Origin: Actinopolyspora erythraea
GTDB taxonomy: Bacteria > Actinomycetota > Actinomycetes > Mycobacteriales > Pseudonocardiaceae
Length of the DNA stretch: 64,000 nt
NCBI RefSeq assembly: GCF_002263515.1
Contig: NZ_CP022752.1
Location: 4,712,001 to 4,776,000, forward strand
Reading direction: 5' to 3'
How positions within the stretch are numbered: the stretch's first letter is position 1; each line of letters starts with the position of its first letter. A program made the translations under genes and the position numbers. The notes under the pieces are model-generated. The model was not told the DNA's origin and made no database searches. It saw only the letters and a list, made by a program, of their open reading frames with translations. Shown here in pieces: positions 1 to 18,008 of this stretch.

Positions 1-71
1 CCGAACGCCGACTGCGCTTCGTCCTCGGTGAGCGAATGTCCCCGGCAGACGGTTCTCAGTTGGTCACGCAT
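1..71 (-). CDS. trpD: Anthranilate phosphoribosyltransferase, N-terminal fragment cut by the window edge
   Basis: Only the first 23 codons are present. They start at an ATG on the minus strand at 71, which overlaps the end of trpG by 8 bases. The peptide contains GHSLTEDEAQSAFG, the helical N-terminal region with LTxxEA that is typical of TrpD proteins. TrpD joins anthranilate to phosphoribosyl pyrophosphate in tryptophan synthesis. The tight overlap after trpE and trpG shows one transcription unit and supports the call despite the short fragment. The presence of trpD suggests that the anthranilate made here goes towards tryptophan rather than being used directly, but the rest of the locus lies outside the window. 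Confidence 0.7.
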   Translation of the reverse strand, partial: MRDQLRTVCRGHSLTEDEAQSAF

Positions 72-651
72 GGTGCGGCTCCAGAAAGTTCGCCATGAGT
101 TGCTTGCCCTCGACGCTGAGTACGGACTCGGGGTGGAACTGCATGCCGAAGGTCGGGTGCTCGCGGTGGCGCAGCCCCATCACCACGCCCTCCGAGGTCC
201 AAGCGTTGATCACCAGTTCCTGTGGTACCGAGGCGGGATCAACGACCAGTGAGTGATAGCGGGTGGACGACAGCGGATTGGGCAGTCCGGCGAACACTCC
301 GCTGCCGTCGTGCTCGATCATCGAGGTCTTGCCGTGGACCGGATCGCCGCGCACCACATCGGCGCCGAAAGCGGCACCGATGCTCTGGTGCCCCAGGCAC
401 ACGCCCAGGATCGGCATCCGCCCACTGAGCCGCCGAATCGCCGGGATCGACACCCCCGCCCGCTCCGGGGAGCACGGCCCCGGTGAGATCACCAACCGGT
501 CGTGTCCGAGAAGCGCTCGCACTGTCGTCTCGTCGTTGCGGTACACGACCGGTTCCGCACCGAGCTCGGCGAGGTAGTGCACGAGGTTGTAGGTGAACGA
601 GTCGTAGTTGTCCAGGACGGCGACCAGCGTTCGACGGGCGTTCGGGCTCAT
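64..651 (-). CDS. trpG: Anthranilate synthase glutamine amidotransferase subunit
   Basis: This 195-residue class I glutamine amidotransferase supplies ammonia to the TrpE subunit for conversion of chorismate to anthranilate. The protein opens with LDNYDSFTYNLVHYL, standard for TrpG/PabA. It carries the nucleophile Cys85 in GVCLGHQSIG and the catalytic His/Glu pair in FHPES near residue 174. Its length is normal for a stand-alone subunit. The start overlaps the trpE stop by four bases (ATGA), so the two subunits are translationally coupled. PabA for folate synthesis is the main alternative. The adjacent trpD start and the anthranilate-type partner favour TrpG. Confidence 0.88.
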   Translation of the reverse strand: MSPNARRTLVAVLDNYDSFTYNLVHYLAELGAEPVVYRNDETTVRALLGHDRLVISPGPCSPERAGVSIPAIRRLSGRMPILGVCLGHQSIGAAFGADVVRGDPVHGKTSMIEHDGSGVFAGLPNPLSSTRYHSLVVDPASVPQELVINAWTSEGVVMGLRHREHPTFGMQFHPESVLSVEGKQLMANFLEPHHA

Positions 652-2132
652 GACATCGCCTCCGCTCGCCGGACCGCGGCGAACAGCGCGCGGGCCTTGT
701 GCAGGGTCTCCTGGTACTCGGCGGTGGGGTCGGAATCGACGACGACACCGGCACCGGCCTGCGCGTGCACCATGCCGTCGGCGACGACCAGGGTGCGCAA
801 CGCGATGGCCAGGTCGGCGTTACCGCCGTGGCTGATGCAGCCGAGAGCTCCGCCGTAGACACCTCGGCGTTGCTGCTCCAACTCGGAGATGATCTCCATG
901 GCCCGGATCTTCGGAGCGCCGCTGAGGGTTCCGGCGGGAAACGTCGCCCGCAGCGCGTCGAGTGCGTCCGCGTCCGAGGTCAGCCTGCCGGACACCGTGG
1001 ACGACAGGTGCATCACGTGCGAGAAGCGCTCGACCTCCATGAGCCTGTCCACCCGCACCGATCCGGTCCGGCTAACTCGACCGAGGTCATTGCGTCCCAG
1101 GTCGACGAGCATCACGTGCTCGGCCTTCTCCTTCTCGTCGTCCAGCAGCTCGTTTTCCAGCGCGAGATCGTCGTTCGCGTCGGGATTCCGTCGTCGGGTA
1201 CCCGCCAGCGGACGGGTCTGCACCCGTCCGCCCTCGTTCTTGACCAGCAGCTCGGGTGAGGCCCCGATGATGTGCCGACCGTTTCCGAGGCTGACGTGGT
1301 ACAGGTACGGGGAGGGGTTGGTGGCACGCAACTGCCGGTAGACATCGATCGGATCGGCGCGCAGCGGTTTGGAGAACCGCTGCGAGAGCACGATCTGGAA
1401 AGCATCGCCGGCCGCGATGTACTCACGAGCCCGGCGCACTCGTCGTTCGTACTCCTCGCGACTGAAGTTGGAGCGCCATTCGTCGAGGTCCGCCGGATCG
1501 GAGTCGGGGTCGGTGGCGGGTACTGGTCCGTCCTCCGGCCCGGGGAGCACGGTGGTGCGCAGCCCCGACTGCATCAGGTCGATGCGCCGCACCGCCTCGC
1601 TGTAGCTCTCCTGGTTCGGCCGGTGCAGTGTGACCAGGAGCAGTTTGCGGGTCGCGTGGTCGACGACCACCAAATCGTCGGTGAGCAGGAACGCCGACTC
1701 CGGCAGGTTCGGCGCGGGCTCCTCGGCGACGGGCAGGTTCTCGAAGTGCCGTGCGGTCTCGTAACCGAGGTAGCCCACGACGCCGCCGTGGAACGGGGGA
1801 AGCCCCGGAACCGGTGCGATCGATTGCTCGACCAGCTCGCACACCGTCGTCAACGGGTCCTCGGAATCGATCTCCAGCGGCTTCGGCCGGTATCCGATGT
1901 AGGAGTACCGTCCGCTCTCGCCGGAGGTCGGCACGTCCTCCAGCAGGAAGCCCGGTTCGTCCGAACCGCAGAGCTGCGCGAACAGCGTCACCGGAGTTAT
2001 CGTGTCCGCGAGGAACTCCCGGTACAGCGGGATGACCGGGTAGTCCACCGCCAGCGTCGCCGCTTCGGCGGGCCCCGGCACACATTCGGGGTCGCGTGTC
2101 TGTCTCGCCGTGTCTTCCAGATAACGTGTCAT
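648..2132 (-). CDS. trpE: Anthranilate synthase component I, biosynthetic-cluster copy
   Basis: This 494-residue chorismate-utilising enzyme has the expected N-terminal regulatory region and a C-terminal catalytic domain with SPELLVK, RPLAGTRRR, LVDLGRNDLGRV and FPAGTLSGAPKIRAME. It makes anthranilate with the coupled TrpG subunit. The usual LLES motif of the tryptophan-binding site reads LLED here, with Asp66 where Ser is normally found. Changes at that Ser in enterobacterial TrpE are known to relieve feedback inhibition, so weakened tryptophan control is a reasonable inference. The gene lies 69 bases downstream of the P450 gene in the same direction. Its place beside kynurenine-type and azoline enzymes suggests it boosts precursor supply for a secondary metabolite. 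Confidence 0.88.
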   Translation of the reverse strand: MTRYLEDTARQTRDPECVPGPAEAATLAVDYPVIPLYREFLADTITPVTLFAQLCGSDEPGFLLEDVPTSGESGRYSYIGYRPKPLEIDSEDPLTTVCELVEQSIAPVPGLPPFHGGVVGYLGYETARHFENLPVAEEPAPNLPESAFLLTDDLVVVDHATRKLLLVTLHRPNQESYSEAVRRIDLMQSGLRTTVLPGPEDGPVPATDPDSDPADLDEWRSNFSREEYERRVRRAREYIAAGDAFQIVLSQRFSKPLRADPIDVYRQLRATNPSPYLYHVSLGNGRHIIGASPELLVKNEGGRVQTRPLAGTRRRNPDANDDLALENELLDDEKEKAEHVMLVDLGRNDLGRVSRTGSVRVDRLMEVERFSHVMHLSSTVSGRLTSDADALDALRATFPAGTLSGAPKIRAMEIISELEQQRRGVYGGALGCISHGGNADLAIALRTLVVADGMVHAQAGAGVVVDSDPTAEYQETLHKARALFAAVRRAEAMS

Positions 2133-2201
2133 GGTCGTCTCTCTCGTCGGTGTCTGGCTCGATGTGGTGCGCGGGAACGACTTCCGCCGAGCGCGGTGGA
2201 C

Positions 2202-3527
2202 TCACGAATCCGTGACGACGCAGCGCGCTCCGTCCGCCGGGGCCATGAACAGGCCCTGCTGCTTGGCATCCGGCACCCCGGAACTCCTGGTCATCCGCAC
2301 CGAGGACAGCACCAGCGCGAGAATGACCCGCATCTCCTCCTTCGCGTAGTTCCTGCCGACGCACGTCCGGGAACCGCCTCCGAAGGAACCGAGTTCGTAG
2401 GGGTCGATACGGGTGTTCAGGAAGCGTCGCGGCAGGAACGTCTCCGGCTGGTCGAACACCTCGTCACTGCGTTGTAGGAGATAAGCGCAGTGGACCAGGA
2501 TCGTGCCCGGTTGAATCGTGTGACCGTCGATCTCCAGTTCCGCGTTGACCATCCGCACCCCGTTCAACGCCGACACGGGGTGCAGTCGCAGGGTTTCCAG
2601 AATGGTCGCCTCGGTGTACTTCAGCTCGGCGAAGTCGTCCCGCCGGAGGGGGCGTTCCCGGAAGCGATCGTCGAGTTCCCCCACCAGCTGCTCGTGCACG
2701 GCTGGATGCGCCAGCACTTCGGCGAACACCCAGGACAGCGTGTTGGCCGTTGTGGCGAAGCCGGTGTAGAGCAGGCTGAAGACCTCGTCCCGCACGACCT
2801 CGTCGGTCAGCGACTCGTCACCGTCGGCAGCGTGGCGCAGCAGCGTGGCGAGCATGTCGTCGTCGCCGGCGCGGTCGGACTTCGCCAGGTGTCCGTCGAG
2901 TCGCTCGGCGACGAACGTCTTGATCGCGCGCTCGGCCGCGGCGGCTCCCTCCGGCCCCAGCTCGGCGCTTTCGGTTCCCGGCAGCAGTGCCGCGAGTTCG
3001 CGGCGGTCGTCCTCGCGGAAATTGCCGCACACGATCTCGACGATGATTTCCGAGGTGATGCGCTGAAGTCGGGGGAACAACGCGATCTCCTCGCCCCTGG
3101 GCCACTCGGCCACACAACGGTCCACCACCTCGGCGACCAGGCCGACGTAGTCGCGCCTGCTGGTCAACGCCGGGATGATCTGGCCGCGCCTGCGCCGGTG
3201 CGGCCTACCGTCGATGTAGCCGACGGAGGCTTCGTCGGTGCCGAAGAACACCTGGTTGGCCGCGGCACCGCTGGCGACGCTCTCGTCCACTCCGTACATG
3301 GTTCTGAGCTGGTGCGGCCGGGAGAGGAAGACCCACTTGCCGTTGTTGTCGACGTCGGTGAGGTCATCGTTGCCCAGCGCACCGAGGTCCAGGGTGAAGA
3401 TGGTTCCGTATTCGGCCCGCATCCGCCGGACGTAGCCGAACGGGTCCCGCTGGAACAGTTCGCTCTGCTGCTCGGTCGGCAGGGTCGGCCCCGGGGGCGG
3501 TCCCGTCGTGAGTTCAGTGGATGTCAT
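2202..3527 (-). CDS. Cytochrome P450 of the biosynthetic locus
   Basis: This 441-residue haem-thiolate monooxygenase has the K-helix ExxR motif in ETLRLHP and the haem-binding loop FGGGSRTCVGRNYAKEE, with Cys as the axial ligand. The I-helix reads LLYTGFATTANT, a slightly altered form of the oxygen-binding (A/G)GxxT motif. The FGGGxRxCxGxxxAxxE loop resembles class II-like bacterial families such as CYP102/CYP110 more than typical actinobacterial CYP105 enzymes. There is no fused reductase, so separate ferredoxin and reductase partners are needed. The start overlaps the end of the upstream fusion gene by 14 bases, so the P450 probably acts in the same pathway. Its substrate cannot be read from the sequence. 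Confidence 0.9.
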   Translation of the reverse strand: MTSTELTTGPPPGPTLPTEQQSELFQRDPFGYVRRMRAEYGTIFTLDLGALGNDDLTDVDNNGKWVFLSRPHQLRTMYGVDESVASGAAANQVFFGTDEASVGYIDGRPHRRRRGQIIPALTSRRDYVGLVAEVVDRCVAEWPRGEEIALFPRLQRITSEIIVEIVCGNFREDDRRELAALLPGTESAELGPEGAAAAERAIKTFVAERLDGHLAKSDRAGDDDMLATLLRHAADGDESLTDEVVRDEVFSLLYTGFATTANTLSWVFAEVLAHPAVHEQLVGELDDRFRERPLRRDDFAELKYTEATILETLRLHPVSALNGVRMVNAELEIDGHTIQPGTILVHCAYLLQRSDEVFDQPETFLPRRFLNTRIDPYELGSFGGGSRTCVGRNYAKEEMRVILALVLSSVRMTRSSGVPDAKQQGLFMAPADGARCVVTDS

Positions 3528-6432
3528 GGCTGAGTGCCTCCTGTGTCATTTCCTTGAGGGAGCCTCGGACGTCTTCGAGAAGCTGGTCGACGATGAGCGG
3601 CCCGGTCCGGTGGTGCATCACGCACGCCCGGATCACCAGGCCCTCGCGGGGAAGCCGCGTGGTGGTCACGTAGACGTTCGCCCGCGCGCAGATGAGCTTG
3701 CACAGCTGTTCGGTACGCTCGGCCGATTCCTCGGGGGTGGCCGCCCGAACTCGGAAGTTGATCACCGGCAGATGCGTTCGTTCCCTGGCCACGACCTCCA
3801 GTTCCTCGAAGGTCGCCAGGCAGGCCGACAGTCGCTCGGCCAGGTCCAGTTTCTGGTCCAGGGTGTCGGTGAAGGCGTCGATGCCGTGCATCTTGATCGG
3901 CAACCAGGCCGTCAGCCCGCGCACTTCCCGGGTCAGTTCCGGTCCGTAGTTGCAGAAGTCGACGTACTCCGGGTCGTCGGTGAGTTCGGGGATGTAGCTG
4001 GCTCCGGGAACCTCGAACGCGGCCCGCAGGTTCGTCCGGTCCCGAACGAGCAGCGCGGAGGTGCCGTGCGGCAGGAACAGCGACTTGTGCGCGTCCACGG
4101 CGACGGAGTCCGACTCCTCGATCCCGGCCAGCAGCTTCCTGCCTCGTTCGGTGATGCCGAAGAAGCCACCGAAGCAAGCATCGGTGTGCAGCCAGATGTT
4201 CTGTCGCCGGCAGAGCTCGCTGATGCTTCGCAGGTCGTCGACGGCTCCGGTGTTCGTGGTTCCCGCGGTGGCCACGACCAGTGTCGGGGTCAGCCCCCGC
4301 CCTCGGTCGTGCTCGACTCGATCCCGCAGTTGATCGACGTCCATCGTGTAGTTGTCGTCGGTCCCGATCGTCCGAACCCGGCAGGGGTCGACTCCGGCCA
4401 GCTTGGCGGCCTTCTCCACGGAGAAGTGGCCCTGGTCGGACACGTAGACGGTGGCGAGCCGCCCCCCGGTGTCCCCGCTGTTGTCCACCGCGCATCGAAC
4501 GCCCATGAAGTTGGCGATCGAACCGCCCGTGGTCAGGTAACCGAACGATCCCTCGCCGTAGCCGAGCATCGTGCAGAACCAGCGGATCACGTTGGATTCG
4601 ATCTGGGTGAATCCCGGCGTCGCCGCCCAGACTCCGACGAACCTGTTCAGTATTCGGGCGATGAACTCACCGACAGCGGCCTGGAACAGACCTCCGGAGG
4701 GCACGTGCGAGAGCATCCCCGGATGCGGGTGCACCATGCCGTTGGTGATCACCCGCTCGAAGATGTCCGACAGCAGGGAGTCGAGGTCCGATCCGACCCG
4801 GGGGACGTCGTCCTCGCGCAGCAGGGCGCTGGCCCGTCGCCCCTCGTCGTAGTCGGCGGGCTCGGAGTCCTGCAGGTAGGATGCCGGATATCCGCCGCCG
4901 GCCATCCTGTCCTGGTAGTCCATGATGCGGTCGGCGACCGCGTCGAGCATCTCCCGCATCTGGTCGCGGGCGAGTTCGAGTTCCGATCCGGACGGAGTCG
5001 ACAGCAGTGAGGTCAAGCCGTCGAAGTGGTCGACAGCGGTGTAGGACTCGATGATGCGATCGGCCTCGGTAGCCATGTCGAAGCGACCGCACAGCTCGTC
5101 CAGCGCCGCGGACTGCTGCTGGTGCCGCTCGACAACCTCGTCATAGGGGATCTCGGTGAACGCGACCATGTGGTAGAGCGGAATGAACTTGTCGGGAGCG
5201 TTCTGGTGCAGTTCCCGTTCCAGCCGCTTCCTGGTGTGGTAGGCGGAGTCCCCCGTCCGGGAGGTCAGCTCCTGGAGATTGAGCAGGGACAGTTCCGCGA
5301 TCGCGTCACCCGGTCCCTTGCGGGTTTCCGTGAATTCGGAGACGGACCGCTGGATCGCACCATCTCCGGAGAACGTCGCCAAATTGTGGTCCAAGATAGC
5401 CAGAAACTGGCGGACGTCCTCGAAACTGCAGTTGATCCCCTGGCCGTAGAACGGAACCATCGTGTGCGACGAATCGCCGATGAGCACCGTCCGGCCGAAG
5501 TGGTAGGGGTGCACCTTGACCGTTTTCAGCGATGCTGGCGGCGCCGCGAAGAAATCGGTGGTCAGCTTCGGCAGGAGATGGGTGATGTCGGGGAAGTGCC
5601 GCTCGAACAGCGCGGTCACGTCTTCGGGAGTGCGCAGTCCGTGGAAGTCCTGTTCCTCGGGGTCGTCGCGCCGCAAGGGCATGAACAGACTGGTGGTGTA
5701 GCTGTTGTCGACGTTGGGCTGGGCCAGCAGCATGAACTCGCCCCGTGGCCAGACGTGCAGGCCGTGCTCCTGACTGGCGGGCTGTCGCCGGTCGCGCAGG
5801 GCCTCCATCAACGCGTGTCGACCGTTGACGTCCGGGGGCATCTCCAGCTCGATGAACCCGTGGTCGATGTAGTCCTGCGACAGCTGCATCCGCGCACCCC
5901 TGCGGCCCATCTCGTGCCGGACGATGCTGTTCGCGCCGTCACAGCCGATGACGATGTCCGCCTCGGAGTGATGTACCTCCGTGCCGTCCACGGCGAAGTG
6001 CGCCCGCGCCGCCATCGGATTCACTCGGACACAGGTGTGGTCGAAGAATAATCGGGCTCCCACCCGGTCGGCTTCGTCCAGCAAGGTGCGATGCAGCATT
6101 CCCCGAGGTATGGACAGCAGGTTGTGTTCCGCCGAGGGCCCGTACGGCTGGTAGGAAAGACTTCCGTCGGTGTGGTGGATCACCCGCTGCGGCAGCGGCA
6201 CGCCGTTGGCGTGAAGCAGGTCGGTGACCCGCTCGTCCAACGAATCCAGTCCGCGCTGGGTCAGCGTCAGGTTGAAGGAGTGCCCCTTGCCCGGGGGGAG
6301 TAGCCGGATGTCGGAACCCTTGTCATAGAGCTCGACCTCGATGCCCCGGGAGCGAAGAGCGATGGCGACCAGACATCCGACCGGTCCCGCTCCCACGATG
6401 ATCGCTTTCATCGAACGATTGGTCTCCGTCAT
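3514..6432 (-). CDS. Fused kynurenine 3-monooxygenase-like and PLP aromatic amino acid decarboxylase-like protein
   Basis: One uninterrupted 972-residue frame holds two enzymes. Residues 1 to about 455 form an FAD monooxygenase with the dinucleotide fold IIVGAGPVGCLVAIAL, the GDSSHTMVPFYGQGINCSFED flavin motif region and features seen in kynurenine 3-monooxygenases (HVWPRGEFMLLAQPN, EIPYDEVV). Residues from about 500 to 970 form a group II PLP decarboxylase with HPHPGMLSHVPSGG and the Schiff-base Lys783 in VDAHKSLFLPHGTS. Family knowledge suggests 3-hydroxylation of kynurenine or a related aryl ketone acid, followed by loss of CO2 to an amine. The order of steps and the exact substrate are inference. 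Both active sites look intact. Neighbouring trpEGD would supply tryptophan, but no tryptophan dioxygenase is visible in the window. Confidence 0.85.
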   Translation of the reverse strand: MTETNRSMKAIIVGAGPVGCLVAIALRSRGIEVELYDKGSDIRLLPPGKGHSFNLTLTQRGLDSLDERVTDLLHANGVPLPQRVIHHTDGSLSYQPYGPSAEHNLLSIPRGMLHRTLLDEADRVGARLFFDHTCVRVNPMAARAHFAVDGTEVHHSEADIVIGCDGANSIVRHEMGRRGARMQLSQDYIDHGFIELEMPPDVNGRHALMEALRDRRQPASQEHGLHVWPRGEFMLLAQPNVDNSYTTSLFMPLRRDDPEEQDFHGLRTPEDVTALFERHFPDITHLLPKLTTDFFAAPPASLKTVKVHPYHFGRTVLIGDSSHTMVPFYGQGINCSFEDVRQFLAILDHNLATFSGDGAIQRSVSEFTETRKGPGDAIAELSLLNLQELTSRTGDSAYHTRKRLERELHQNAPDKFIPLYHMVAFTEIPYDEVVERHQQQSAALDELCGRFDMATEADRIIESYTAVDHFDGLTSLLSTPSGSELELARDQMREMLDAVADRIMDYQDRMAGGGYPASYLQDSEPADYDEGRRASALLREDDVPRVGSDLDSLLSDIFERVITNGMVHPHPGMLSHVPSGGLFQAAVGEFIARILNRFVGVWAATPGFTQIESNVIRWFCTMLGYGEGSFGYLTTGGSIANFMGVRCAVDNSGDTGGRLATVYVSDQGHFSVEKAAKLAGVDPCRVRTIGTDDNYTMDVDQLRDRVEHDRGRGLTPTLVVATAGTTNTGAVDDLRSISELCRRQNIWLHTDACFGGFFGITERGRKLLAGIEESDSVAVDAHKSLFLPHGTSALLVRDRTNLRAAFEVPGASYIPELTDDPEYVDFCNYGPELTREVRGLTAWLPIKMHGIDAFTDTLDQKLDLAERLSACLATFEELEVVARERTHLPVINFRVRAATPEESAERTEQLCKLICARANVYVTTTRLPREGLVIRACVMHHRTGPLIVDQLLEDVRGSLKEMTQEALSHDIH

Positions 6433-6936
6433 TTTCCCCTCGTTTCCGGAAACGCGGTGAGAAGGAACACCTTCTCCACGACGACGCTTCAGAGGGCATC
6501 GACCCAGCTTTCGCGTCTGCCGGAAAATCTAGGGAGAAAACCTCTCGTCGCTCTCTTCGGCGGCTCTCGAACCGCTATCCCTTCGTGTTTCTCGGAGGAC
6601 ACCGCCTTGCTGTCGAGCACAAATCGTCCGCGGGAAGGCGGTGCGGCGAAGCCGACCCCACCGTTCGGCGGAGGACGCGGCCACGGTGGTCGCCCGCGCG
6701 TTTCGGCCCGGCCCCGTCTACCGGTGATCCAGGACGCGAACGTTTCGGAAGAGGGACCTCATCATCGGGTTCCGAAGCGTCGCGGTTTCCGTCTCGCACG
6801 GCTCGACAGCGAGCTCGCCCGAAGGACTGACTCGCGTTACTACGTCCAGTGGAGCTCCCACGACATGCCGTGAAGTACTGTGGGCACGAACCGTACAATT
6901 CCGGCGGGGGCGCGCGGCCGCTTCGAGGGAGGATCC
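6433..6936. other. Divergent intergenic region between the fusion gene and the response regulator
   Basis: These roughly 500 bases separate the minus-strand biosynthetic operon from the plus-strand response regulator. They must hold the promoters of both, although no clear -35/-10 pair was recognised. Reading frames here have no family features and an Arg-rich composition typical of non-coding GC-rich DNA, so no gene is called. The size is larger than usual for this tightly packed locus, so a binding site for the SARP or the LuxR regulator is plausible. Confidence 0.4.
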
Positions 6937-7542
6937 GTGATCACGGCTATGCTCGCCGAGGACATGCACATGCTCCGCGGCGCTCTGGTCGCTCTACTCA
7001 AGACGGAACCGGACATCGACGTGGTGGCCGAGATCGTCTCCGGTGACGAAGTGCTGCCGACCGCTCACGAACACCGCCCGAACGTCGCGGTGCTCGACAT
7101 CGATCTGCCGGGCAAGGACGGACTGACCGCCGCGGCCGAGATCCACGAGCAACTCCCCGAGATTAGAACTCTCATGCTCACCGGCCTCGGGCGGGCGGCG
7201 ACGCTTCGCCGAGCGCTGTCGACCAAGGTGGGCGGTTTCATTCTCAAGGACGCCCCACCGACGGAGCTGACCGACGCCATTCGGAGTGTGGCCGCGGGAA
7301 ACCGGGTGGTGGACAGCCAACTGGCACTGGCGGCGTTCGACACCGTGGAATGCCCGCTGACCACGCGGGAAACCGAAGTGCTGCGGCTGGCCGCGGACGG
7401 CGCCGACGTGGTGGAGATCGCCAGCACCCTGTTTCTGACCGCCGGAACGGTGCGCAACTACCTCACCACCATCGCGAGCAAGCTCAACGCGCGCAATCGG
7501 CTCGACGCCGTACGCATCGCCAGGGAATCCGGCTGGCTGTAG
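6937..7542 (+). CDS. NarL/LuxR-family response regulator
   Basis: The 201-residue protein has an N-terminal receiver domain with acidic residues E8/D9, phospho-acceptor Asp54 in VLDIDLPGKDG and a conserved Lys in FILKDAPP. A C-terminal LuxR helix-turn-helix follows (TTRETEVLRLAADG, with LTAGTVRNYLTTIASKLNARNR). The GTG start at 6937 is preferred because GGGAGG lies just upstream. An earlier in-frame start would add residues unlike the family. It resembles DesR-type regulators that are phosphorylated by HisKA_3 kinases. A kinase of that class lies at 13864-15048 and is the natural partner even though other genes separate them. The gene is convergent with the dehydrogenase gene downstream. Confidence 0.88.
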   Translation: MITAMLAEDMHMLRGALVALLKTEPDIDVVAEIVSGDEVLPTAHEHRPNVAVLDIDLPGKDGLTAAAEIHEQLPEIRTLMLTGLGRAATLRRALSTKVGGFILKDAPPTELTDAIRSVAAGNRVVDSQLALAAFDTVECPLTTRETEVLRLAADGADVVEIASTLFLTAGTVRNYLTTIASKLNARNRLDAVRIARESGWL

Positions 7543-7569
7543 CGGAGTACACCTTGAGCAGCCGGAACC

Positions 7570-9087
7570 CTAGGCCACAGCGGTGGTCCGCTCATCCGGC
7601 AGGGTGCCGAGGACGAACTCGCCGACACTGACCTCGGCCGGCCAGTTCAGCCGGAAAGCCTCGGCTGCCACGGCACCGTCGGAGCTGACCAGCGCGCACG
7701 GCGCGAGCCGCATCGCGGTGGTGACGAGGTGCAGCGTCTGCTGCAGCAGCCCCACCTGTTTCAACGCCATCGCGTAAGCGATCCCGCTGTAGAGCCAGGA
7801 CAGTCGTAGGATTCGCACGGTCATCGTGATCAGTGCCGAGGGACGCTGGGCCATTCCACCGGACATCCGCGCGCTGTCCAGCAAATTGCCCATGCGCTCC
7901 CCCGGCGTCTCGATCAAGGTCACCGAGTGATCGCTCGGATCGTAGTGATAGATACCGCGCGGCAGTCCCGAGCAGCGGTCCAGGGTCAGGTAGAGCTCCA
8001 GCGCGTGCGCACCGCCCATGACGGGGTACGGGCGGTCGGTGCTCTCGTACTGTTCTCCCCCCGGACCGGCCAGGGTCCACACCGATCGGACCCTGGCGCA
8101 GCGGTACAGCAGTTCACCGAGCTGGTCGACACTCACCGGTGCACTACCGAAGCATCGATAGGACTTCGCCTGCTCCATCGTCGCCGTCAACGACGCGTCG
8201 TGCGCGGCGAGCCGCTCGAGTGACGGACGGCTCAACCGGAACCGCCTGCCGTGCGGCCTGGCGGGCACCGCCGGTGGCGACGGCAGGTCACTGTGTTCGA
8301 AGACCGCGCCGAGTGCGGCGTCGTCATGACCGGCTCCGCTCCGCGAGTGGAACAGCAGGTCGTGGTGTGACCACGGAGTCAGTCCGGTGTCGGAGTCCTC
8401 CGCGAAGACCGGCTCCGCGCTTGCCGGGATCCTGGTCCCGACCACCACCATGCCCGCCGCGACCAGATGGCCGACGAGCTGACGTACCGTCGTCTCGTCG
8501 AAGTCCGCGCCGGAAGCCAGCTCGCTGATATCGACGGACCTCGCCAACATGCCGATCGCCGCGACCACCCGCGGACGATGCAGCACCACTCGATACCGCG
8601 CCAGCGGGGACTCCAGGACCATCGCACCCTGGTAGGGGCGCAGAGCGGCGAAGCGGGACAGTCGGAACTCGTCCCGCTTCCCCATCCGGGGGAGCTCGAA
8701 CGACGCGTCGTGCGTGATCGGCACCGCGGACAACAGCGGTCCGGAGCAGTCGTCGATGGCCAGTGAGTGCACCACCGAACCCGACAGCAGATCCAGCACC
8801 CGCATGAGTTCGGTGTAGTTCGGATCGTCCTCCGGCGCACCACCGCGTTGTCTGCTGCCGTTCATGGTGCGTAGGGACAGCATGTTCTCCAGGGCCACCG
8901 GTCCCAGACTCATGCGGTGCAGCCACTCCTTCACCGGTGTTCCCGGGTTCGGTATCCGAACCTCCCCCCATCGAGTGAACACAACCAAGCTGTCCGCGTC
9001 GGTCTCGTAGTCCTCGACGAGCGTGTCCTCGCGCAACGACCACAACCTGAGTCGCTCCGGTGATCGGGTGTGGACCTGCTGGCGCAT
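7570..9087 (-). CDS. SagB-type azoline dehydrogenase
   Basis: This 505-residue protein has a poorly conserved N-terminal half and, from about residue 285 on, a nitroreductase-like FMN domain of the SagB/ThcOx type. Recognisable segments include KSYRCFGSAPVSVDQLGELL, YPVMGGAHALELYL, RGIYHYDPSDHSVTLI and SGIAYAMALKQVGLLQQTLH, which match the family pattern of substrate- and FMN-contacting regions. Such enzymes oxidise thiazolines or oxazolines to thiazoles or oxazoles. The gene starts 28 bases after the YcaO gene stop and is preceded by GGAG, so the two form one operon and probably act on the same product. The role of the long N-terminal part is unknown. It may bind the substrate or the cyclodehydratase. 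Confidence 0.82.
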   Translation of the reverse strand: MRQQVHTRSPERLRLWSLREDTLVEDYETDADSLVVFTRWGEVRIPNPGTPVKEWLHRMSLGPVALENMLSLRTMNGSRQRGGAPEDDPNYTELMRVLDLLSGSVVHSLAIDDCSGPLLSAVPITHDASFELPRMGKRDEFRLSRFAALRPYQGAMVLESPLARYRVVLHRPRVVAAIGMLARSVDISELASGADFDETTVRQLVGHLVAAGMVVVGTRIPASAEPVFAEDSDTGLTPWSHHDLLFHSRSGAGHDDAALGAVFEHSDLPSPPAVPARPHGRRFRLSRPSLERLAAHDASLTATMEQAKSYRCFGSAPVSVDQLGELLYRCARVRSVWTLAGPGGEQYESTDRPYPVMGGAHALELYLTLDRCSGLPRGIYHYDPSDHSVTLIETPGERMGNLLDSARMSGGMAQRPSALITMTVRILRLSWLYSGIAYAMALKQVGLLQQTLHLVTTAMRLAPCALVSSDGAVAAEAFRLNWPAEVSVGEFVLGTLPDERTTAVA

Positions 9088-9115
9088 AATCGCTCCATCA
9101 TCGGGCTGTCGCTCG

Positions 9116-11416
9116 TCAGAGAAACAGCGGTAGCGGGTTCAGATCCTCGTAGCGGGTCGGCTCGGCGACCCGACCGAGGTGCACCGGGACGTCGTAGAGT
9201 CGTCCGGGGCCGAACCTGGCCCAGAAACTGCGCAGTCCCGGCACGATCGTCTTGACCACCGGCAGTCCTATGTCGGGACGGGTCTGGTCGAGCACGAGCA
9301 GCTCCATCCCCGACGCCTCCAGCCGTCGCTGGACCAGACTCAGCTCGGCGAGAAGATCCGACTCCTGGTCGGCGACGTGGTCGGCGGCCGTCCGCGGTCG
9401 CTGCTTCGGATCGGGCAACAGGTAGGGCTGGTTGCGGACCGTCGCGGTGCGCCACCAGTGAACCGCGTCGGGATCGCTCCAGCCGTACTCGCCGTCATCG
9501 TCGATACCGATCATCGTGGGCATCAACTGGTTCAGTTCGGTCAGGCAGCGGTGCAGCGCCACCTGGGGGGAGAGGTGCGCACCGAACCCGAACATGATGT
9601 CCTCACTGGGTTTGTCGGTACGTCGGGAGATCGCGACCATGGTCGGAATCCCCAGGTCGGAGGTCACGTCCAGTACCCACAGCTGACGGTCCAGCCCGGT
9701 GTGGGCCGCGCGTACCTCGTCGATCCACGGATCGGTGAAGGAGTCCAGGTCAACCCCGGCCGCACGGGTGCGGTTGTACCACCACAGCGCGACCGCGTCC
9801 CGCTCCACCAGTTCCAGCAGGCCCTGCAACACCGCGTCCTCGACGCTGCTGCCGGCCGCGTTCCCGTTCGAATCGGCACGCACCGACGACGCCCCCGGTG
9901 CGTCGAAGTACAACATCCCCGTCGGGAGCAACCGGTGTCGCTTCCTGGTCATCGACCACACTGGCGTCCAGTCCAACTCGGCTTCCTCGTCGAAGGGATC
10001 GCAGACGAACTGGAAGGGCGAGTGCCGGCGGTTCCACTCCGCGCGTCCGGTGTACTGTCGCTCATCGAAAAGCTGGCAGGAGTCGGGATGGATCGCCCTG
10101 TCCGACAGTGCGCGGAAACTGCCCCGGACACGCTCCTCGTCGCCGTGGAAATACCCGCAATGCCGTTCCAGCGCCTCGCACAGCGCGCTGACCTCGGCAT
10201 GCAACGGGGTGATTCCCTTACCGCCGTTCTCGGTGCGTAACGCCGTACGTAATCGCTCCACTCCCCCGTTTCCGACGGCGAGGTTGGGACCGCTGCGAAA
10301 GGAGTTGAACAAAGCCGGACCGCGCGGATCCTGTCGGATCTCCTTGATGACACCGGTGACCGGGCTGACCAGGTGTCGGTAGTCGTCGAGCGTTTGCCGC
10401 GCCGTGCGCGAGCGTGATCCCGCACCGGTGCCCTCGACCTTGCGTCGGCTCCGAACCTCCACCGGATGCCACGCCCGGTTACGCACCAGGTCCGGATCAC
10501 CGCACGAAGAGCACTGCGGCCGAGGCCGAACATCGTGGTGCCTCGCCCCCAGGTCGAGGCTGTCCAGGGTCCACACCCCGCGTTGCTCGGCGGATCGGTA
10601 TCCGGCCAACCACTTGCTCGCTTCCAGAGCGACCAGGTGCATTCCGGTGGCGGTCAGCGCGGGTATCGCCGCCCTGACTCGGTGCGCGGGCCCTTGTTTC
10701 CGCAACGTGGCCTGCACGTGGGCCTCCGCTTGGCGATGCCCCCAGATCCTGGTGGCCATGCAGTGCCAGCAAGCCCGCTCGGACTCGGACGGATCGAAAA
10801 CCGGCCCGACCCACAGCTGCGCGCCGACCGGTTTGGCCAGCAACCACGGCTTGTTCGTCGCCCGGTGCCGGGCGTCCACTTCGGCGAGATCGACATGTAG
10901 GTAGTCCTCGCAGAGCACCACGGACAGCAGCGTCGATTCGTGCGGCGCGGCCGCCGTGTCCGCCGTTCGAACCCGCAGTCCGGCGTCGGTCAGAGCCTGT
11001 CTCGCACTGTCCTGGTCAACATCGCCGAGTGCGATCAAACCCACCGTGGCACCGATGGTCTCCGAGCGTACCGCGTCCGCGTCGAGCCCCGCTGTTTCCC
11101 AGTACGCGCGCTCGGCGGCATTCCCGCTGTTGACCCGTGTCGGGTCCCGCAGCTCCAGCAGATTCGCCTCGGCCAGTTGGATGAGCAAACCACCGGCCTG
11201 CTGTGACGTGACACCTTCGGGAAGATCGCGATACAGATCCTCCAGATTCCGAGTACCGTCCAGCATCGGAGCTATCAGCTCCATACCGGATCCCTCCAGC
11301 GCCGTCACACCACGTTCGGAAAAGACATAAGCGGCGTCTCCGCTGACGACCTCCAGACGTAGGTATGATTTGAAGCCGACCAGCAGTCGCCCCGGGTTCT
11401 CGGCCGTCGGATTCAT
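9116..11416 (-). CDS. Fused E1-like/YcaO azoline cyclodehydratase (TOMM)
   Basis: The 766-residue protein begins with a winged-helix, PqqD-like recognition region (about 1-95). An Ocin-ThiF/E1-like middle part carries a zinc site formed by CWHC (near residue 216) and CSSC (near residue 302). A YcaO domain follows from about residue 370. ATP-binding acidic motifs are seen in HAEVSALCEALERH and EDAVLQGLLELVERDA, and the chain ends LNPLPLFL, a Pro-rich tail typical of azoline-forming YcaO proteins. Such enzymes use ATP to cyclise Cys, Ser or Thr side chains onto the preceding amide. The start overlaps the upstream 72-codon ORF by four bases. No typical TOMM precursor was identified with confidence nearby. 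Confidence 0.88.
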   Translation of the reverse strand: MNPTAENPGRLLVGFKSYLRLEVVSGDAAYVFSERGVTALEGSGMELIAPMLDGTRNLEDLYRDLPEGVTSQQAGGLLIQLAEANLLELRDPTRVNSGNAAERAYWETAGLDADAVRSETIGATVGLIALGDVDQDSARQALTDAGLRVRTADTAAAPHESTLLSVVLCEDYLHVDLAEVDARHRATNKPWLLAKPVGAQLWVGPVFDPSESERACWHCMATRIWGHRQAEAHVQATLRKQGPAHRVRAAIPALTATGMHLVALEASKWLAGYRSAEQRGVWTLDSLDLGARHHDVRPRPQCSSCGDPDLVRNRAWHPVEVRSRRKVEGTGAGSRSRTARQTLDDYRHLVSPVTGVIKEIRQDPRGPALFNSFRSGPNLAVGNGGVERLRTALRTENGGKGITPLHAEVSALCEALERHCGYFHGDEERVRGSFRALSDRAIHPDSCQLFDERQYTGRAEWNRRHSPFQFVCDPFDEEAELDWTPVWSMTRKRHRLLPTGMLYFDAPGASSVRADSNGNAAGSSVEDAVLQGLLELVERDAVALWWYNRTRAAGVDLDSFTDPWIDEVRAAHTGLDRQLWVLDVTSDLGIPTMVAISRRTDKPSEDIMFGFGAHLSPQVALHRCLTELNQLMPTMIGIDDDGEYGWSDPDAVHWWRTATVRNQPYLLPDPKQRPRTAADHVADQESDLLAELSLVQRRLEASGMELLVLDQTRPDIGLPVVKTIVPGLRSFWARFGPGRLYDVPVHLGRVAEPTRYEDLNPLPLFL

Positions 11417-11631
11417 CGAGTCACCGCCTCGGTTCGCGTCATCACCGGCTCCGTCGCGGCGGCAACGCCGGCCCAGGAGACCGTGGTGGGTGACACCTGG
11501 GCATCGGCTGGATTCGTCCAGCCGTCGAGCTCGTCGATCACCAGCCCCGTGCGGGCAGCGACCGCCTGATCACCTGAGAGGTTCAGCGATGCGCAGAACG
11601 ACGTTATCCGCTCGGACACTGTGGAAGCCAT
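11413..11631 (-). CDS. 72-residue coupled peptide, candidate precursor or accessory protein of the azoline enzymes
   Basis: This small ORF begins at an ATG with GGATGGAG about seven bases upstream. It ends within the start of the cyclodehydratase gene (ATGA overlap), so it is very likely translated. The first half is predicted helical and acidic. The second half contains clusters of Thr and Ser (SPTTVSWAG, TRTEAVTR) and one Trp; the single Cys is near the N-terminus. A TOMM precursor would be expected at this place in the operon, and Ser/Thr could give oxazol(in)es. However, the C-terminal half is not as Cys/Ser/Thr-rich as known cores, and it matches no family I recognise. A leader-binding helper or small regulator is an equally good guess. 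Confidence 0.5.
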   Translation of the reverse strand: MASTVSERITSFCASLNLSGDQAVAARTGLVIDELDGWTNPADAQVSPTTVSWAGVAAATEPVMTRTEAVTR

Positions 11632-11926
11632 GAGCGCTCCATCCGGGAAGAAGGAAATATCGCTGTGGTACGTTCACCATTCTGCGCCTGGTTCACCCGC
11701 TCGACGAGGGCGCGCGTCACCGATCAAACATGCGTTCCTCACAATCGCGCACCATGAGATCCTCATACCACGAGATCCCACTTTTCATCCGACCTTCGTG
11801 ACGCTCGCACTTTACTCAGAGGACTCCATCGAGCAAGATACGCAGTGCACTGGGGAAACAGGGGAGACGAAATCGTTCTCATTTTTCCGGCAAGTAATTC
11901 AATGCCTCGCAGGAATAGAGTCGATC
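11632..11926. promoter_or_regulatory. Divergent promoter region between the azoline operon and the SARP gene
   Basis: About 295 bases lie between the divergent starts at 11631 (minus) and 11927 (plus). The stretch is visibly less GC-rich than the flanking genes, especially 11640-11690 and 11740-11900, as expected for promoter DNA. SARP proteins usually bind direct heptamer repeats near the -35 of target promoters. I could not pick out a convincing pair by eye. Confidence 0.45.
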
Positions 11927-13801
11927 ATGTTTTTTCGCGTACTCGGACCGCTGGACGTCTCACTCCGGGGAACATCGGTCAAAGTCGGGAAGAACCGACA
12001 ACGGACCGTTCTCGCCGCGCTGCTCGCCGAAGCGAACCGCGCCGTTTCGGTGGGGTGGCTCGTGGAAGTGGTGTGGAACGGCAACCCACCGAGAACCGCG
12101 GCCGAGCAGATCCAGACCTGTATCTGGCGGCTACGCCGCATGTTCGTGCTGGCGGGCGCACCGCGGGACCCCATCGAGACCACACCGTCCGGATACGCAC
12201 TGCGCGTCGATCCGGATGATGTGGACGCCACCCTCTTCGAACGACTCGCCCGAGAGGCCAGGTCCATCGCCTCGGAGGGCGGATCAGCGCTGGCGGCCGC
12301 ACGTTACCGTGAGGCGCTACAACTGTTCCGCGGCCCGGTGCTGGCCGAGATCTCCTCGCCCCTGCTGCAGTCCGTGTCAGCCTCCTGGGAGGAGCGCAGG
12401 CTGACGGCCCTGGAAGAATGCTTCGATCTCGAACTGTCCTCGGAGATGAGCGCCGAGCTCGTCGACGAACTGACGACGCTGGTGTGGCTGCATCCGTTGC
12501 GCGAACGGTTCCGGGCACAGCTCATGCGCGCGCTGCGAGACAGTGATCGCCGTGCCGAGGCGCTGGCGGCCTACCAGGACTGCCGCAACAAGATGGTCTC
12601 CGAGCTGGGGCTGGAGCCCAGCTCGACATTGCAGGAACTGCACCACGGCATTCTGGCCGATGAACCGGTGAGAACCGATGCGGTCCCGAGCCGCGTTCCC
12701 GCGCTGCTGCCCGCTGACATCACCGATTTCGTCGGGCGACAGGACCAGATCACCGAGTTCACCCGATTGCTCACCGGCAGCGGCAGCCCCGTCGCCCCCG
12801 AGTCCGACAACGCTCGTATGTTCACTCTGCTCGGCAGCAGAGGAGCGGGCAAGACGGCGCTGGCCGTGCACACCGCCCATCGGGTGCGTGACCACTTCCC
12901 GGGCGGGCAGCTCTACGCCGATCTCGGCGATATCCCCGCGGACTTGGCCAGGACCGCCGAAATCCTGCGAGGTTTCCTGCGCGCACTCGGCGTTCCCACT
13001 GCCGAGATCCCCGAGGACACGCACGCCTGTGCCTCCCTGTACCGGAGCCTCGTGGCCGAACGCCGGATGCTCGTGGTGCTCGACGACGCGGTGAACTCCG
13101 ACCAGATCGAGCGACTACTACCCAGTGGCCCGAGAACCGCGGTGATCATTACTACACGGTCCAATCTCACCGACCTGCCGGGTAGCGTCCCGGTCGAGGT
13201 GGAGGCGTTCTCCGAGCAGGAAGCGCTGACGCTGCTCGGCCGTATCATCGGGTCCGGACGAGTAGAGGCGGAACTCGGCAGCGCGAGACAGATAGTAGCG
13301 GCAGCGGGCCGGTTGCCGTTGGCGGTCAGAGCCGCCGGTGCCCGACTGGTCGGGCGGCCGAACGTCAGCCTGGCGCACTTCGCCCAGCGCCTGGGCCATC
13401 CGTTCCGCCGCCTGGACATGTTCTCGTACGGGACGCTCGACCTGCGCGCCCGGCTGTCGGTCAACACCCACGCCCTGCCGGCGGAGCCCCGAATGCTGTG
13501 GTGCGCCCTGGGGCTGGTCGGCATGTCGGATTTCGACACACGCCCCGCCGCACAACTGGCCGACTGTGCCCCCTCCCACGCGGAAAGACTGCTGGACCAG
13601 CTGGTCGACCAGCGCCTGGTGGACATCGCGGGCATCGACGACGAAGCACACATCCACTACCACATGCACGAACTGGTCGGGCTGTACGCCAAAGAACGAG
13701 CTCATACGGAATTACCGGAACCGGTGCGCACACGTGTTTCCAATGTCGCCGTCAACGGTTTCCCCGACGACTGGCGGACGACCGTGCACTCCGGTGTGTG
13801 A
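11927..13801 (+). CDS. SARP/AfsR-type pathway activator with NB-ARC domain
   Basis: The 624-residue protein starts with MFFRVLGPLDVSL, the standard opening of SARP DNA-binding domains. The ATG at 11927 is therefore chosen over a longer in-frame extension back to 11621 that lacks family features. Residues 1-95 form the OmpR-like winged helix (RTVLAALLAEANRAVS, TCIWRLRRMF). Residues 100-245 form the BTAD helical region (DVDATLFERLAREAR, LMRALRDSDRRAEALAAYQ). An NB-ARC ATPase follows with Walker A GSRGAGKTAL near residue 302 and a Walker B-like LVVLDD. No long TPR tail is present. Proteins of this class activate antibiotic clusters, so it probably controls the neighbouring enzymes. Confidence 0.9.
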   Translation: MFFRVLGPLDVSLRGTSVKVGKNRQRTVLAALLAEANRAVSVGWLVEVVWNGNPPRTAAEQIQTCIWRLRRMFVLAGAPRDPIETTPSGYALRVDPDDVDATLFERLAREARSIASEGGSALAAARYREALQLFRGPVLAEISSPLLQSVSASWEERRLTALEECFDLELSSEMSAELVDELTTLVWLHPLRERFRAQLMRALRDSDRRAEALAAYQDCRNKMVSELGLEPSSTLQELHHGILADEPVRTDAVPSRVPALLPADITDFVGRQDQITEFTRLLTGSGSPVAPESDNARMFTLLGSRGAGKTALAVHTAHRVRDHFPGGQLYADLGDIPADLARTAEILRGFLRALGVPTAEIPEDTHACASLYRSLVAERRMLVVLDDAVNSDQIERLLPSGPRTAVIITTRSNLTDLPGSVPVEVEAFSEQEALTLLGRIIGSGRVEAELGSARQIVAAAGRLPLAVRAAGARLVGRPNVSLAHFAQRLGHPFRRLDMFSYGTLDLRARLSVNTHALPAEPRMLWCALGLVGMSDFDTRPAAQLADCAPSHAERLLDQLVDQRLVDIAGIDDEAHIHYHMHELVGLYAKERAHTELPEPVRTRVSNVAVNGFPDDWRTTVHSGV

Positions 13802-13863
13802 CAGTCGTGTCGTCACCGAACGAAGCGCCTCCGTTCAACGGCACTTCCCGCTCGGCTCGCGGA

Positions 13864-15048
13864 TCAAGCGACGACACGCTCGTCTTCGTCCGGGACCCGC
13901 AACGGGGCGTAGGCGTACAGCCGGAAACGGTTTCCGGAATCAATTTCGGAGACGAGTTCGCCACTGAGCTCACCGAGTCGATGAGTAAGGTTGTCCAGAC
14001 CGCTCCCACCGCCGAAATCCCGGTCCGACGACACGGCGGCCACACCATCATTGATCATTTCGACGAAAGCGTTGTCGTCGGTACAGCCGACGGTTACCTC
14101 ACAGTTCTTGGCCCGGCTGTGGCGGAGGACGTTGGTCGCCGCTTCCCGCAACACGGTCGCCAGAACCGTGCTGACCCGGATCGGCAGGTCCTCGTATTCC
14201 TGGTTGATTCGCACCTGAACTCCCGCCGCGGTGAGTACCGAGTGCACGGACCGGCACTCTTCGTCCAGGGACAGCTCACGGTACCCACTCGCCACCGAAC
14301 GCACGTCCACCAACGCACGGCGCGAGATCTCCAGGATCTCCCCGAGCTCCTCCTTGGCACGCGCGGGCTGACGGTTCACCAACCGGTGGGTCAGCTCGGT
14401 CTTCAAGGTGATCGTCGAGAGACTGTAGCCCAACAGATCATGCAGGTCCCGGGCGAACCGCAGTCTCTCCTGCGCCACCGCCATCTCCGCGAGTTCGGTC
14501 CGAACCTCGTGGACCTCACGAACCAGCCCCGCCAGCCGGGACAGTCCGTACACCACCAGCCCGGTGATCACGGTGGAGACCGAGGTGTAGACGACGTCCA
14601 CATAAGTCCCGCCGAACTGCGCCTGTGCCACCCCCATGCTCATCACGACCAGCGCGAAGGCGGGCCAGGCCACCGCGGGAGTCAGGGTCAGCAGGACACT
14701 TCCCGCGAGAAAGCCCGGCATACCTACCCAGGCCTGCTGAAACTGCAGTATCGGCAGGTACACCAGTCCGGCCTGGAGCAGCAGTGCCAGCGAGCTCCAC
14801 GGCCGCCGGAACCACGGCGTCTCCCGCCCGAAGTACAGTAGTTGCAGCATCAGCAGCGCCACCATGTACGAGAACGAGAGAACGACTCCGGTCACGCCCA
14901 CGGGCATCATCAGGACGTGCAGGAAGCCCACCAAGCAGATCGCGCAGAAGACCGTGCTCACCACCAGGCGGGCGATCCTGGGAGCGAAACGGGTGTACGA
15001 GACCACGTCATCCGAGGTGGATCCGTCGACACTCGATGCAGCCACCAT
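13864..15048 (-). CDS. Membrane sensor histidine kinase, HisKA_3 class
   Basis: The 394-residue kinase has about five or six N-terminal membrane segments (roughly residues 25-180), with little extracytoplasmic loop. It then has a dimerisation and phosphorylation region with the phospho-acceptor His in ERLRFARDLHDLLGYSLST. The HATPase region shows the N box (LREAATNVLRHS) and a G box (GGGSGLDNLTHRL). This arrangement is that of DesK-like kinases that pair with NarL/LuxR regulators, such as the one at 6937-7542. A GTG three bases after the ATG has better spacing from AGAGG and may be the true start. The gene is convergent with the SARP gene, 62 bases away. The signal sensed is unknown; the membrane core suggests a lipid, antibiotic or envelope cue. 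Confidence 0.87.
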   Translation of the reverse strand: MVAASSVDGSTSDDVVSYTRFAPRIARLVVSTVFCAICLVGFLHVLMMPVGVTGVVLSFSYMVALLMLQLLYFGRETPWFRRPWSSLALLLQAGLVYLPILQFQQAWVGMPGFLAGSVLLTLTPAVAWPAFALVVMSMGVAQAQFGGTYVDVVYTSVSTVITGLVVYGLSRLAGLVREVHEVRTELAEMAVAQERLRFARDLHDLLGYSLSTITLKTELTHRLVNRQPARAKEELGEILEISRRALVDVRSVASGYRELSLDEECRSVHSVLTAAGVQVRINQEYEDLPIRVSTVLATVLREAATNVLRHSRAKNCEVTVGCTDDNAFVEMINDGVAAVSSDRDFGGGSGLDNLTHRLGELSGELVSEIDSGNRFRLYAYAPLRVPDEDERVVA

Positions 15049-17340: not shown

Positions 17341-17704
17341 ACCTGCTCCTCTGATCAGTCCGTATCCGACAGTAACGAACCGACTACCCGAGGAGGAAAT
17401 CAACTCTCCCGGAACTCTCCCCTTGCGCTCCCGGCATCGCTCCCTCCCGTGTCAGGCCACAACGACGGAGGCTCGTGGTGGCACTGCCGAAGCGCTGGAG
17501 AGGTAGCGGACTGTGCAAACACCCGTATCGACCGCACGAGCGACCCGCGCGGTAGCGAAACGCTCGTTCGCACGTGAGCAACGGACCCCGCGCCGAACAC
17601 GGCGCACAACGAGAGCCGCCCGGGCGCGACACCCCGAAGCACATCCGGGATTCACATACGAATCTCCACACGCAGCACCAGTCCCCGTGCGCTGGGGGCG
17701 AACC
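17341..17704. promoter_or_regulatory. Divergent promoter region of the radical SAM module
   Basis: This 364-base gap separates the minus-strand XRE gene from the plus-strand small gene. It must carry promoters for both directions. I saw no clear operator palindrome or sigma consensus. Longer reading frames that cross it lack family features and were not called. Confidence 0.4.
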
Positions 17705-17938: not shown

Positions 17939-18008
17939 TTCCGACGCCGGACCTTTTAGGCCGGCTCCACTCCACCACACGGAAGCTGTAATCAACGCGG
18001 GAAATCGA

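What the first reader, a model, noticed from the sequence alone, without database searches (positions are those of the whole stretch)
1..15048. Hybrid locus joining tryptophan/kynurenine chemistry with TOMM azoline enzymes
Seen: trpEGD, P450 and the KMO-decarboxylase fusion on one side, SagB dehydrogenase and YcaO cyclodehydratase on the other, with SARP, response regulator and kinase around them. Known: each part is common in specialised metabolism, but I know no pathway with this set. Inference: the product may contain both a kynurenine-derived aromatic amine and thiazole or oxazole rings, or the two halves may be two adjacent pathways under shared control.
Basis: inference. Interest (0 to 1): 0.85.

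Follow-up and report, generated by a model that had tools for sequence, protein, structure and literature searches.

The report
Two nested pathways, not one hybrid
This stretch of an Actinopolyspora chromosome holds two gene sets that occur independently in other genomes but here share one island: one likely turns tryptophan into a methylated kynurenine-type aromatic amine through an unusual fused enzyme, and the other is predicted to make an oxazole-bearing peptide from a small candidate precursor gene beside it.

Summary
Among 390 genomes of the family the KMO-decarboxylase fusion occurs in 7 and a close YcaO in 136. They are neighbours only in this genome and one near-twin; in four other fusion genomes they lie on different contigs or about 185 kb apart, and in one no YcaO was found. 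Left half: DAHP synthase, trp genes, fusion, P450, DszC-type monooxygenase and, outside the window, a methyltransferase 57% identical to SibL that keeps 11 of 12 residues contacting 3-hydroxykynurenine. It likely makes 3-hydroxy-4-methylkynuramine, a decarboxylase replacing the kynureninase of sibiromycin-type pathways. The SARP falls in the left pathway's clade (100/99), so TOMM genes lie between that pathway and its own regulator. A SARP-like heptamer array precedes the fusion gene; none was found before the precursor/YcaO or kinase genes, so shared control is not supported. No product or reaction was shown.

The parts
1..71 (-). trpD, 5' end only (gene runs to window position -960); the supply genes trpC, trpB, trpA and DAHP synthase lie further left, outside the window
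64..651 (-). trpG-type glutamine amidotransferase
   Evidence: PF00117 and TIGR00566
648..2132 (-). trpE-type anthranilate synthase component I
   Evidence: PF00425, PF04715; TIGR00564 506.4 bits, just under its cut-off of 517.7
2202..3527 (-). cytochrome P450 of the left set
   Evidence: PF00067; next to the fusion in 7 of 8 other loci
3514..6432 (-). fusion: kynurenine 3-monooxygenase-like half plus PLP decarboxylase-like half
6542..6581 (-). predicted SARP site: heptamers at 11-base pitch before the fusion gene
   Evidence: highest score in 86 kb with a matrix made from other genera
6880..7542 (+). NarL-type response regulator of the TOMM cassette
   Evidence: beside YcaO in 16 of 19 other loci
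7570..9087 (-). SagB-type azoline dehydrogenase
   Evidence: TIGR03605 over cut-off
9116..11416 (-). TOMM leader-binding domain + YcaO cyclodehydratase
   Evidence: PF02624, TIGR03604, TIGR03882; PDB best LynD, TruD, MusD
11413..11631 (-). candidate precursor peptide, 72 aa; stop overlaps the YcaO start; leader motif LVIDELDGWTNP, core with PTTVSW
11927..13801 (+). SARP/AfsR-type activator of the left set (ORF opens at 11621; start at the Met before FFRVLGPLDV is more likely)
13864..15048 (-). histidine kinase of the TOMM cassette
   Evidence: PF07730; beside YcaO in 17 of 19 other loci

Best explanation
The locus holds two biosynthetic gene sets, each found without the other in other genomes, with peptide-set genes lying here between the kynurenine-type set and that set's own SARP regulator, and they are most likely two separate pathways. 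Pathway A (inferred): the cluster's own DAHP synthase and trp genes raise tryptophan; a dioxygenase encoded elsewhere would open it to kynurenine; the KMO half of the fusion would add the 3-hydroxyl; the SibL-like enzyme would methylate C4 while the carboxylate is still there; the decarboxylase half would then give 3-hydroxy-4-methylkynuramine (or the matching aldehyde, which could close to a quinoline). The DszC-type monooxygenase with its flavin reductase, the P450 and the aldo/keto reductase would oxidise this further, perhaps to a quinone, and the GST of hydroquinone-reductase type and the WrbA-like protein would handle quinones. The SARP is predicted to switch this set on through the heptamer array before the fusion gene. 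Pathway B (inferred): the 72-aa precursor would bind the YcaO protein by its conserved leader, YcaO and SagB would turn Thr/Ser of the PTTVSW core into (methyl)oxazoles, and the kinase/response-regulator pair would control it. Shown here: gene content, conservation, independence of the sets, SARP phylogeny. Not shown: any product, reaction or binding.
For: Independence: fusion in 7 of 390 family genomes, YcaO in 136 of 390; adjacent only in G000 and G049; unlinked in G016, G214, G216, G218; no YcaO at that threshold in G361. Left set conserved without YcaO; YcaO set conserved without the fusion or the P450 in 19 of 19 loci looked at. Chemistry: methyltransferase identical to SibL at 188 of 332 positions, 11 of 12 substrate contacts kept; KMO residues R84, Y98, N369, Y404 kept, R, Y, Y in 42 of 42 fusions and PLP lysine in 42 of 42; DszC-like and hydroquinone-reductase-like partners. 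SARP: best match in G216, G361 and G016 is the copy beside the fusion; one clade, 100/99. Site array highest in 86 kb. Precursor: leader motif conserved, 57 relatives.
Against: No product or activity is known. The two sets do stay together in both Actinopolyspora genomes that have the fusion, and 6 of 7 fusion genomes carry some YcaO relative against 130 of 383 others (kinship is the likely cause, not tested). SibL's Tyr99 is Phe, and N369 is kept in only 25 of 42 fusions. No dioxygenase lies in the cluster; the one in G000 is fused to DUF6875. Plain counts of 11/22-base repeats before the fusion gene do not exceed shuffles (shares 0.14, 0.36, 0.12, 1.0, 0.17, 0.42, 0.82); no site of score 15 or more was found before the fusion in G218 and G361 or in the flanks L088-L091. 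The precursor is short and was picked by eye; no candidate was picked in 3 of 19 loci.
Confidence: 0.72

Rival explanations
1. One hybrid pathway: a kynurenine-derived aromatic amine is joined to an azole-bearing ribosomal peptide.
For: Both sets side by side in G000 and G049, with the left set's SARP inside the TOMM genes.
Against: Sets occur apart in the other fusion genomes and in 19 of 19 YcaO loci looked at. No ligase or NRPS gene was seen among the genes annotated in the locus.
Confidence: 0.05
2. Two separate products, but under shared control: the SARP has taken the slot that a TOMM SARP holds elsewhere and now also drives the peptide genes.
For: In 11 of 19 TOMM loci another kind of SARP lies near YcaO; here the only one in the locus is the left set's, divergent from the precursor/YcaO genes.
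Against: No heptamer array before precursor/YcaO (best 3.0) or kinase (best -1.3), against 24.9 before the fusion. The response regulator shares the 6433-6936 gap with the array, but the array faces the fusion.
Confidence: 0.15
3. The fusion works on tryptophan or tryptamine (indole hydroxylation and decarboxylation), not on kynurenine.
For: No dioxygenase gene in the cluster. The decarboxylase half is nearest in the PDB to 4obu, which I recall as a tryptophan decarboxylase. VioC is the best NCBIfam match of the FAD half (122 bits, cut-off 760).
Against: Kynurenine-binding residues kept; SibL-like methyltransferase with its 3-hydroxykynurenine contacts; the PDB proteins nearest to the FAD half are kynurenine 3-monooxygenases.
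Confidence: 0.1

Closest known systems
Sibiromycin branch through 3-hydroxy-4-methylkynurenine (SibL; PMC4426599: abstract and passages read)
   Same: KMO-type enzyme and a SibL-type methyltransferase, 57% identical, substrate contacts kept.
   Different: No kynureninase or dioxygenase in the cluster; a decarboxylase is fused to the KMO instead, so the side chain and amine would be kept. That sibiromycin uses a kynureninase is recalled.
TOMM gene clusters with a fused cyclodehydratase (PMC4603692: passages read), above all the mobilisin group of Actinobacteria
   Same: Fused leader-binding/YcaO protein, B-type dehydrogenase, short precursor nearby with few Cys, Ser and Thr.
   Different: Here with a kinase, a response regulator and a different host range; whether the YcaO falls in the mobilisin group was not tested.
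Mansouramycin pathway of Streptomyces albus (PMC12690601: passages and sections 4 and 7 read)
   Same: Tryptophan-fed aminoquinone chemistry in an actinomycete.
   Different: Its C7 precursor has lost the side chain; its genes were not compared here.

Membership tests
TOMM (azole/azoline peptide) | YcaO cyclodehydratase with leader-binding domain | tested here: met
   TIGR03604 and TIGR03882 over cut-off; LynD, TruD, MusD best in the PDB
TOMM (azole/azoline peptide) | precursor peptide with leader and heterocyclisable core | tested here: inconclusive
   72-aa ORF with conserved leader and PTTVSW core; binding or modification not shown
TOMM (azole/azoline peptide) | azole or azoline in the product | not testable with these tools
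   needs expression and mass spectrometry
Mobilisin group | YcaO falls in the group's sequence network | not tested
   only text passages seen
Kynurenine 3-monooxygenase | kynurenine-binding residues R84, Y98, N369, Y404 (P. fluorescens numbering; roles recalled) | tested here: met
   all four identical in the window's protein; among 42 fusions R 42, Y 42, N 25, Y 42
SibL-type 3-hydroxykynurenine C-methyltransferase | residues contacting 3-hydroxykynurenine | tested here: met
   11 of 12 identical, Tyr99 is Phe; both catalytic tyrosines kept
Sibiromycin-type 3-hydroxy-4-methylanthranilate pathway | kynureninase in the cluster (recalled) | tested here: not met
   TIGR01814: no match in the cluster; in G000 nothing over cut-off, best 24.7 of 246.4 bits
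Sibiromycin-type 3-hydroxy-4-methylanthranilate pathway | tryptophan 2,3-dioxygenase in the cluster (recalled) | tested here: not met
   PF03301 in 6 of 7 fusion genomes, none of the listed matches in the cluster
Single hybrid kynurenine-TOMM pathway | both halves co-occur as one locus across genomes | tested here: not met
   together in 2 of 7 fusion genomes, a near-twin pair

The most novel reading that the evidence does not exclude
An undescribed class of actinobacterial alkaloids is built on 3-hydroxy-4-methylkynuramine: a bifunctional KMO-decarboxylase takes the place of kynureninase, so the side chain with its amine is kept and closed or oxidised to a methylated quinoline- or aminoquinone-type product; in Actinopolyspora an oxazole-peptide cassette has lodged between this cluster and its SARP.
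Probability: 0.5. Interest if true: 0.7.

Novelty: new variant of a known kind. Interest (0 to 1): 0.55.

Why it matters
If the inference holds, there is a genetically defined bacterial route to methylated kynuramines, which keep the side chain that kynureninase pathways cut off, and one gene (the fusion) by which to mine for it: 41 full-length or nearly full-length relatives besides the window's were listed, one of them from Sorangium, and the names seen describe domains only. The leader motif gives a sequence handle on a TOMM type whose relatives in the database are nearly all labelled hypothetical. The interleaving is also a warning for automatic cluster borders: the regulator of one set lies inside the other.

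Tried and rejected
Hybrid pathway: rejected by the co-occurrence test. SARP as part of the TOMM cassette (my first reading): rejected. Tyr/Phe rule for decarboxylase against aldehyde synthase (recalled): not usable, because the bacterial DOPA decarboxylase 7xin has Leu at the aligned place and 37 of 42 fusions have Phe. IDO (PF01231) as kynurenine source: no match in 7 genomes, but the control rang nowhere either, so this says nothing. Phylum-wide search: 1 of 396 genomes, the window's own. Paper searches for a known product or a kynurenine-decarboxylase cluster and for YcaO/SagB with kynurenine or with kinases showed none in the listings; only the listed titles and abstract starts were seen, and the library lacks most subscription journals. 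The plasmid collection gave the two fusion loci used here; Ensifer holds only a lone decarboxylase gene. No structure was predicted. The site at 17404-17432 (score 21.0) stands before an unrelated gene, and shuffles reach 21.2, so single sites of that score are weak.
Full report
Where it lies. The window is G000:C1:4712001-4776000 of a 5.24-Mb single-contig genome.

Left of the window. The flank continues the operon: trpD, trpC, trpB (found in the frame's region), trpA and a class-II DAHP synthase, then a GST, an acyl-CoA-dehydrogenase-fold protein, an aldo/keto reductase, a WrbA-like flavoprotein, a methyltransferase and a flavin reductase. PDB matches sharpen the names: the acyl-CoA-dehydrogenase-like protein matches DszC over nearly its whole length (250 bits), the GST matches glutathione transferases including Xi-type and glutathionyl-hydroquinone reductase entries, and the methyltransferase matches SibL at 413 bits against 88 for the next.

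The methyltransferase is the strongest clue to chemistry. SibL methylates C4 of 3-hydroxykynurenine; six residues (Tyr99, Tyr134, Tyr288, Asp292, Tyr295, His335) hydrogen-bond it and six more make hydrophobic contacts (PMC4426599, passages). The Actinopolyspora enzyme is identical to SibL at 188 of 332 aligned positions and keeps 11 of these 12; Tyr99 is Phe. His335, which the paper says contacts the carboxyl group, is kept, so methylation before decarboxylation is inferred.

The fusion. The N-terminal half aligns with kynurenine 3-monooxygenases (best 233 bits), the C-terminal half with PLP decarboxylases (best 209 bits). R84, Y98, N369 and Y404 of the P. fluorescens enzyme (roles recalled) are all kept. 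One search listed 53 proteins; I used the 41 that run over both halves plus the window's own and left out 12 (two shorter pieces and ten without the decarboxylase). In these 42, R, Y and Y are invariant, N is kept in 25, the PLP lysine in 42. In Streptomyces sp. 3211 the two halves are separate neighbouring genes followed by a P450 and an acyl-CoA dehydrogenase family protein. In G361 the match is split over two frames.

Conservation of the left set. Eight loci were compared: the six other genomes and two plasmid records (flanks of G214, G216, G218 and G016 extended). Near the fusion: P450 in 7 of 8; trpE, G, D, C, B, A and DAHP synthase in 5 of 8; the SibL-like methyltransferase and the DszC-like protein each in 6 of 8; a SARP close to the window's in 6 of 8. 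Embleya shares the fusion and otherwise only an SDR match far off; S. sp. 3211 shares the fusion halves and the P450 by tblastn.

Independence of the halves. The fusion was found in 7 of 390 family genomes (E up to 1e-150) and in 1 of 396 phylum-wide, the window's own; a YcaO relative (E up to 1e-130) in 136 of 390. G000 and G049 have them side by side. In G016, G214 and G218 they are on different contigs, in G216 about 185 kb apart, and G361 has no YcaO at that threshold. Against this, 6 of 7 fusion genomes have some YcaO relative, against 130 of 383 others; eight genomes of genus g22 are listed with YcaO, three of them with the fusion, so kinship is the likely cause, which was not tested. 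In 19 other YcaO loci of about 17 kb, chosen by me, none had the fusion or the P450; scattered weaker matches to other left-set genes were a DAHP synthase (42%), a WrbA (46%), an MFS (45%) and a weak acyl-CoA dehydrogenase (24%).

The right set. In those 19 loci a SagB match over nearly its whole length occurred in 11, a partial one in 4 and none in 4; the histidine kinase in 17, the response regulator in 16, a SARP in 11. Regulator, SagB, YcaO and kinase thus form the cassette. A short ORF before YcaO with a leader like LVIDELDQW was picked by eye in 16 of the 19; none was picked in L067, L070 and L079. Of these 16 and the window's, 10 rows were given to the profile: I and D invariant; L, W, N and P at 90% or more. 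The profile search lists 58 proteins, one of them the window's own; the names shown are nearly all 'hypothetical protein'. Of the twelve relatives read, three share PT(T/S)VSW after the leader with the window's (P0203, P0210, P0214). Between G000 and G049 the ORF differs at 6 of 219 bases, the 294 bases before it at about 10%.

The SARP. Its best match in G216 (609 bits; next 337, among 80), G361 (547; next 255) and G016 (526; next 363) is the copy beside the fusion. A 42-row tree puts the seven fusion-cluster SARPs in one clade (100/99), apart from 13 rows out of 11 TOMM loci. So the left set's regulator lies beyond the response regulator, SagB, YcaO and precursor, and the kinase lies beyond the SARP.

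Promoter sites. Before the fusion gene stands a run of heptamers at 11-base pitch (TCGAGAG, CGAAGAG, ACGAGAG), the arrangement recalled for SARP sites. Similar runs were seen before the fusion in G216, G214 and G016, and a two-unit one, picked by eye, in G218. Simple counts of such repeats do not exceed shuffles in any of these regions. A matrix built from those four genomes only puts the window's site first in 86 kb (24.9; highest of 60 shuffles 21.2); weaker sites stand before the methyltransferase (19.9) and DszC-like (18.1) genes, and one before an unrelated gene (21.0 at 17404). With a first matrix that also held the Actinopolyspora sites, G016 had a second strong site before its flavin-reductase-like gene (27.4) and G361 weak ones near its DszC-like gene (18.1, 19.1), but none was found at that threshold before the fusion in G218 and G361, nor in the flanks L088-L091. 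Before precursor/YcaO and kinase the best scores are 3.0 and -1.3. The response regulator shares the gap with the array, which faces the fusion gene.

Island. The MFS gene left of the set and the dipeptidase right of it are 33.8 kb apart in G000, 31.2 kb in G049, 9.2 kb in G046, 7.8 kb in G050 and 1.85 kb in G052. The dipeptidase was found in 5 of 10 genomes of the genus, the MFS in 10 of 10; the other five genomes were not read. Both sets therefore sit in one variable site.

Supply of kynurenine. TDO-family genes occur, unlinked, in 6 of 7 fusion genomes. The one in G000 is fused to DUF6875 and stands in another operon. G000 has no kynureninase over the cut-off and G016 none either; G049, G216, G218 and G361 have one elsewhere, and G214 one just under the cut-off.

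Literature. No paper seen describes this set. Mansouramycins are tryptophan-fed aminoquinones of Streptomyces albus (PMC12690601, passages and sections 4 and 7), but their genes were not compared. The mobilisins (PMC4603692, passages) are the nearest described TOMMs by layout.

Verdict. Two clusters lodged together, not a hybrid. The left one is a new variant of the 3-hydroxykynurenine pathways with a plausible new product class; the right one is a new member of the TOMMs with its candidate precursor named.

Noticed in passing
window 19854-20058: Three near-identical 29-base repeats at 61-base spacing plus a degenerate fourth, which looks like a small CRISPR array remnant. No cas gene was looked for.
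   Followed up: partly
window 17841-19703 (+): One long frame joins a MoaA-like radical SAM part (weak match to the viperin family, far under its cut-off) and a CYTH/cyaB-like part under its cut-off.
   Followed up: no
window 17404-17432 (-): SARP-like heptamer array (score 21.0) just before the HTH/TPR gene 16075-17403, not seen in G049.
   Followed up: no
L087:6090-7487 (-), G000:C1 near 2659 kb: Tryptophan-dioxygenase-family protein fused to DUF6875, next to a class-III aminotransferase, an amidase and a class-I/II aminotransferase.
   Followed up: partly
P0045-P0053: A different KMO fusion family: KMO-like protein joined to a PF04199 domain, about 700 aa.
   Followed up: no
between window about -13600 and 20156: Variable island site of the genus: the same two flanking genes are 1.85 to 33.8 kb apart in five genomes.
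   Followed up: partly
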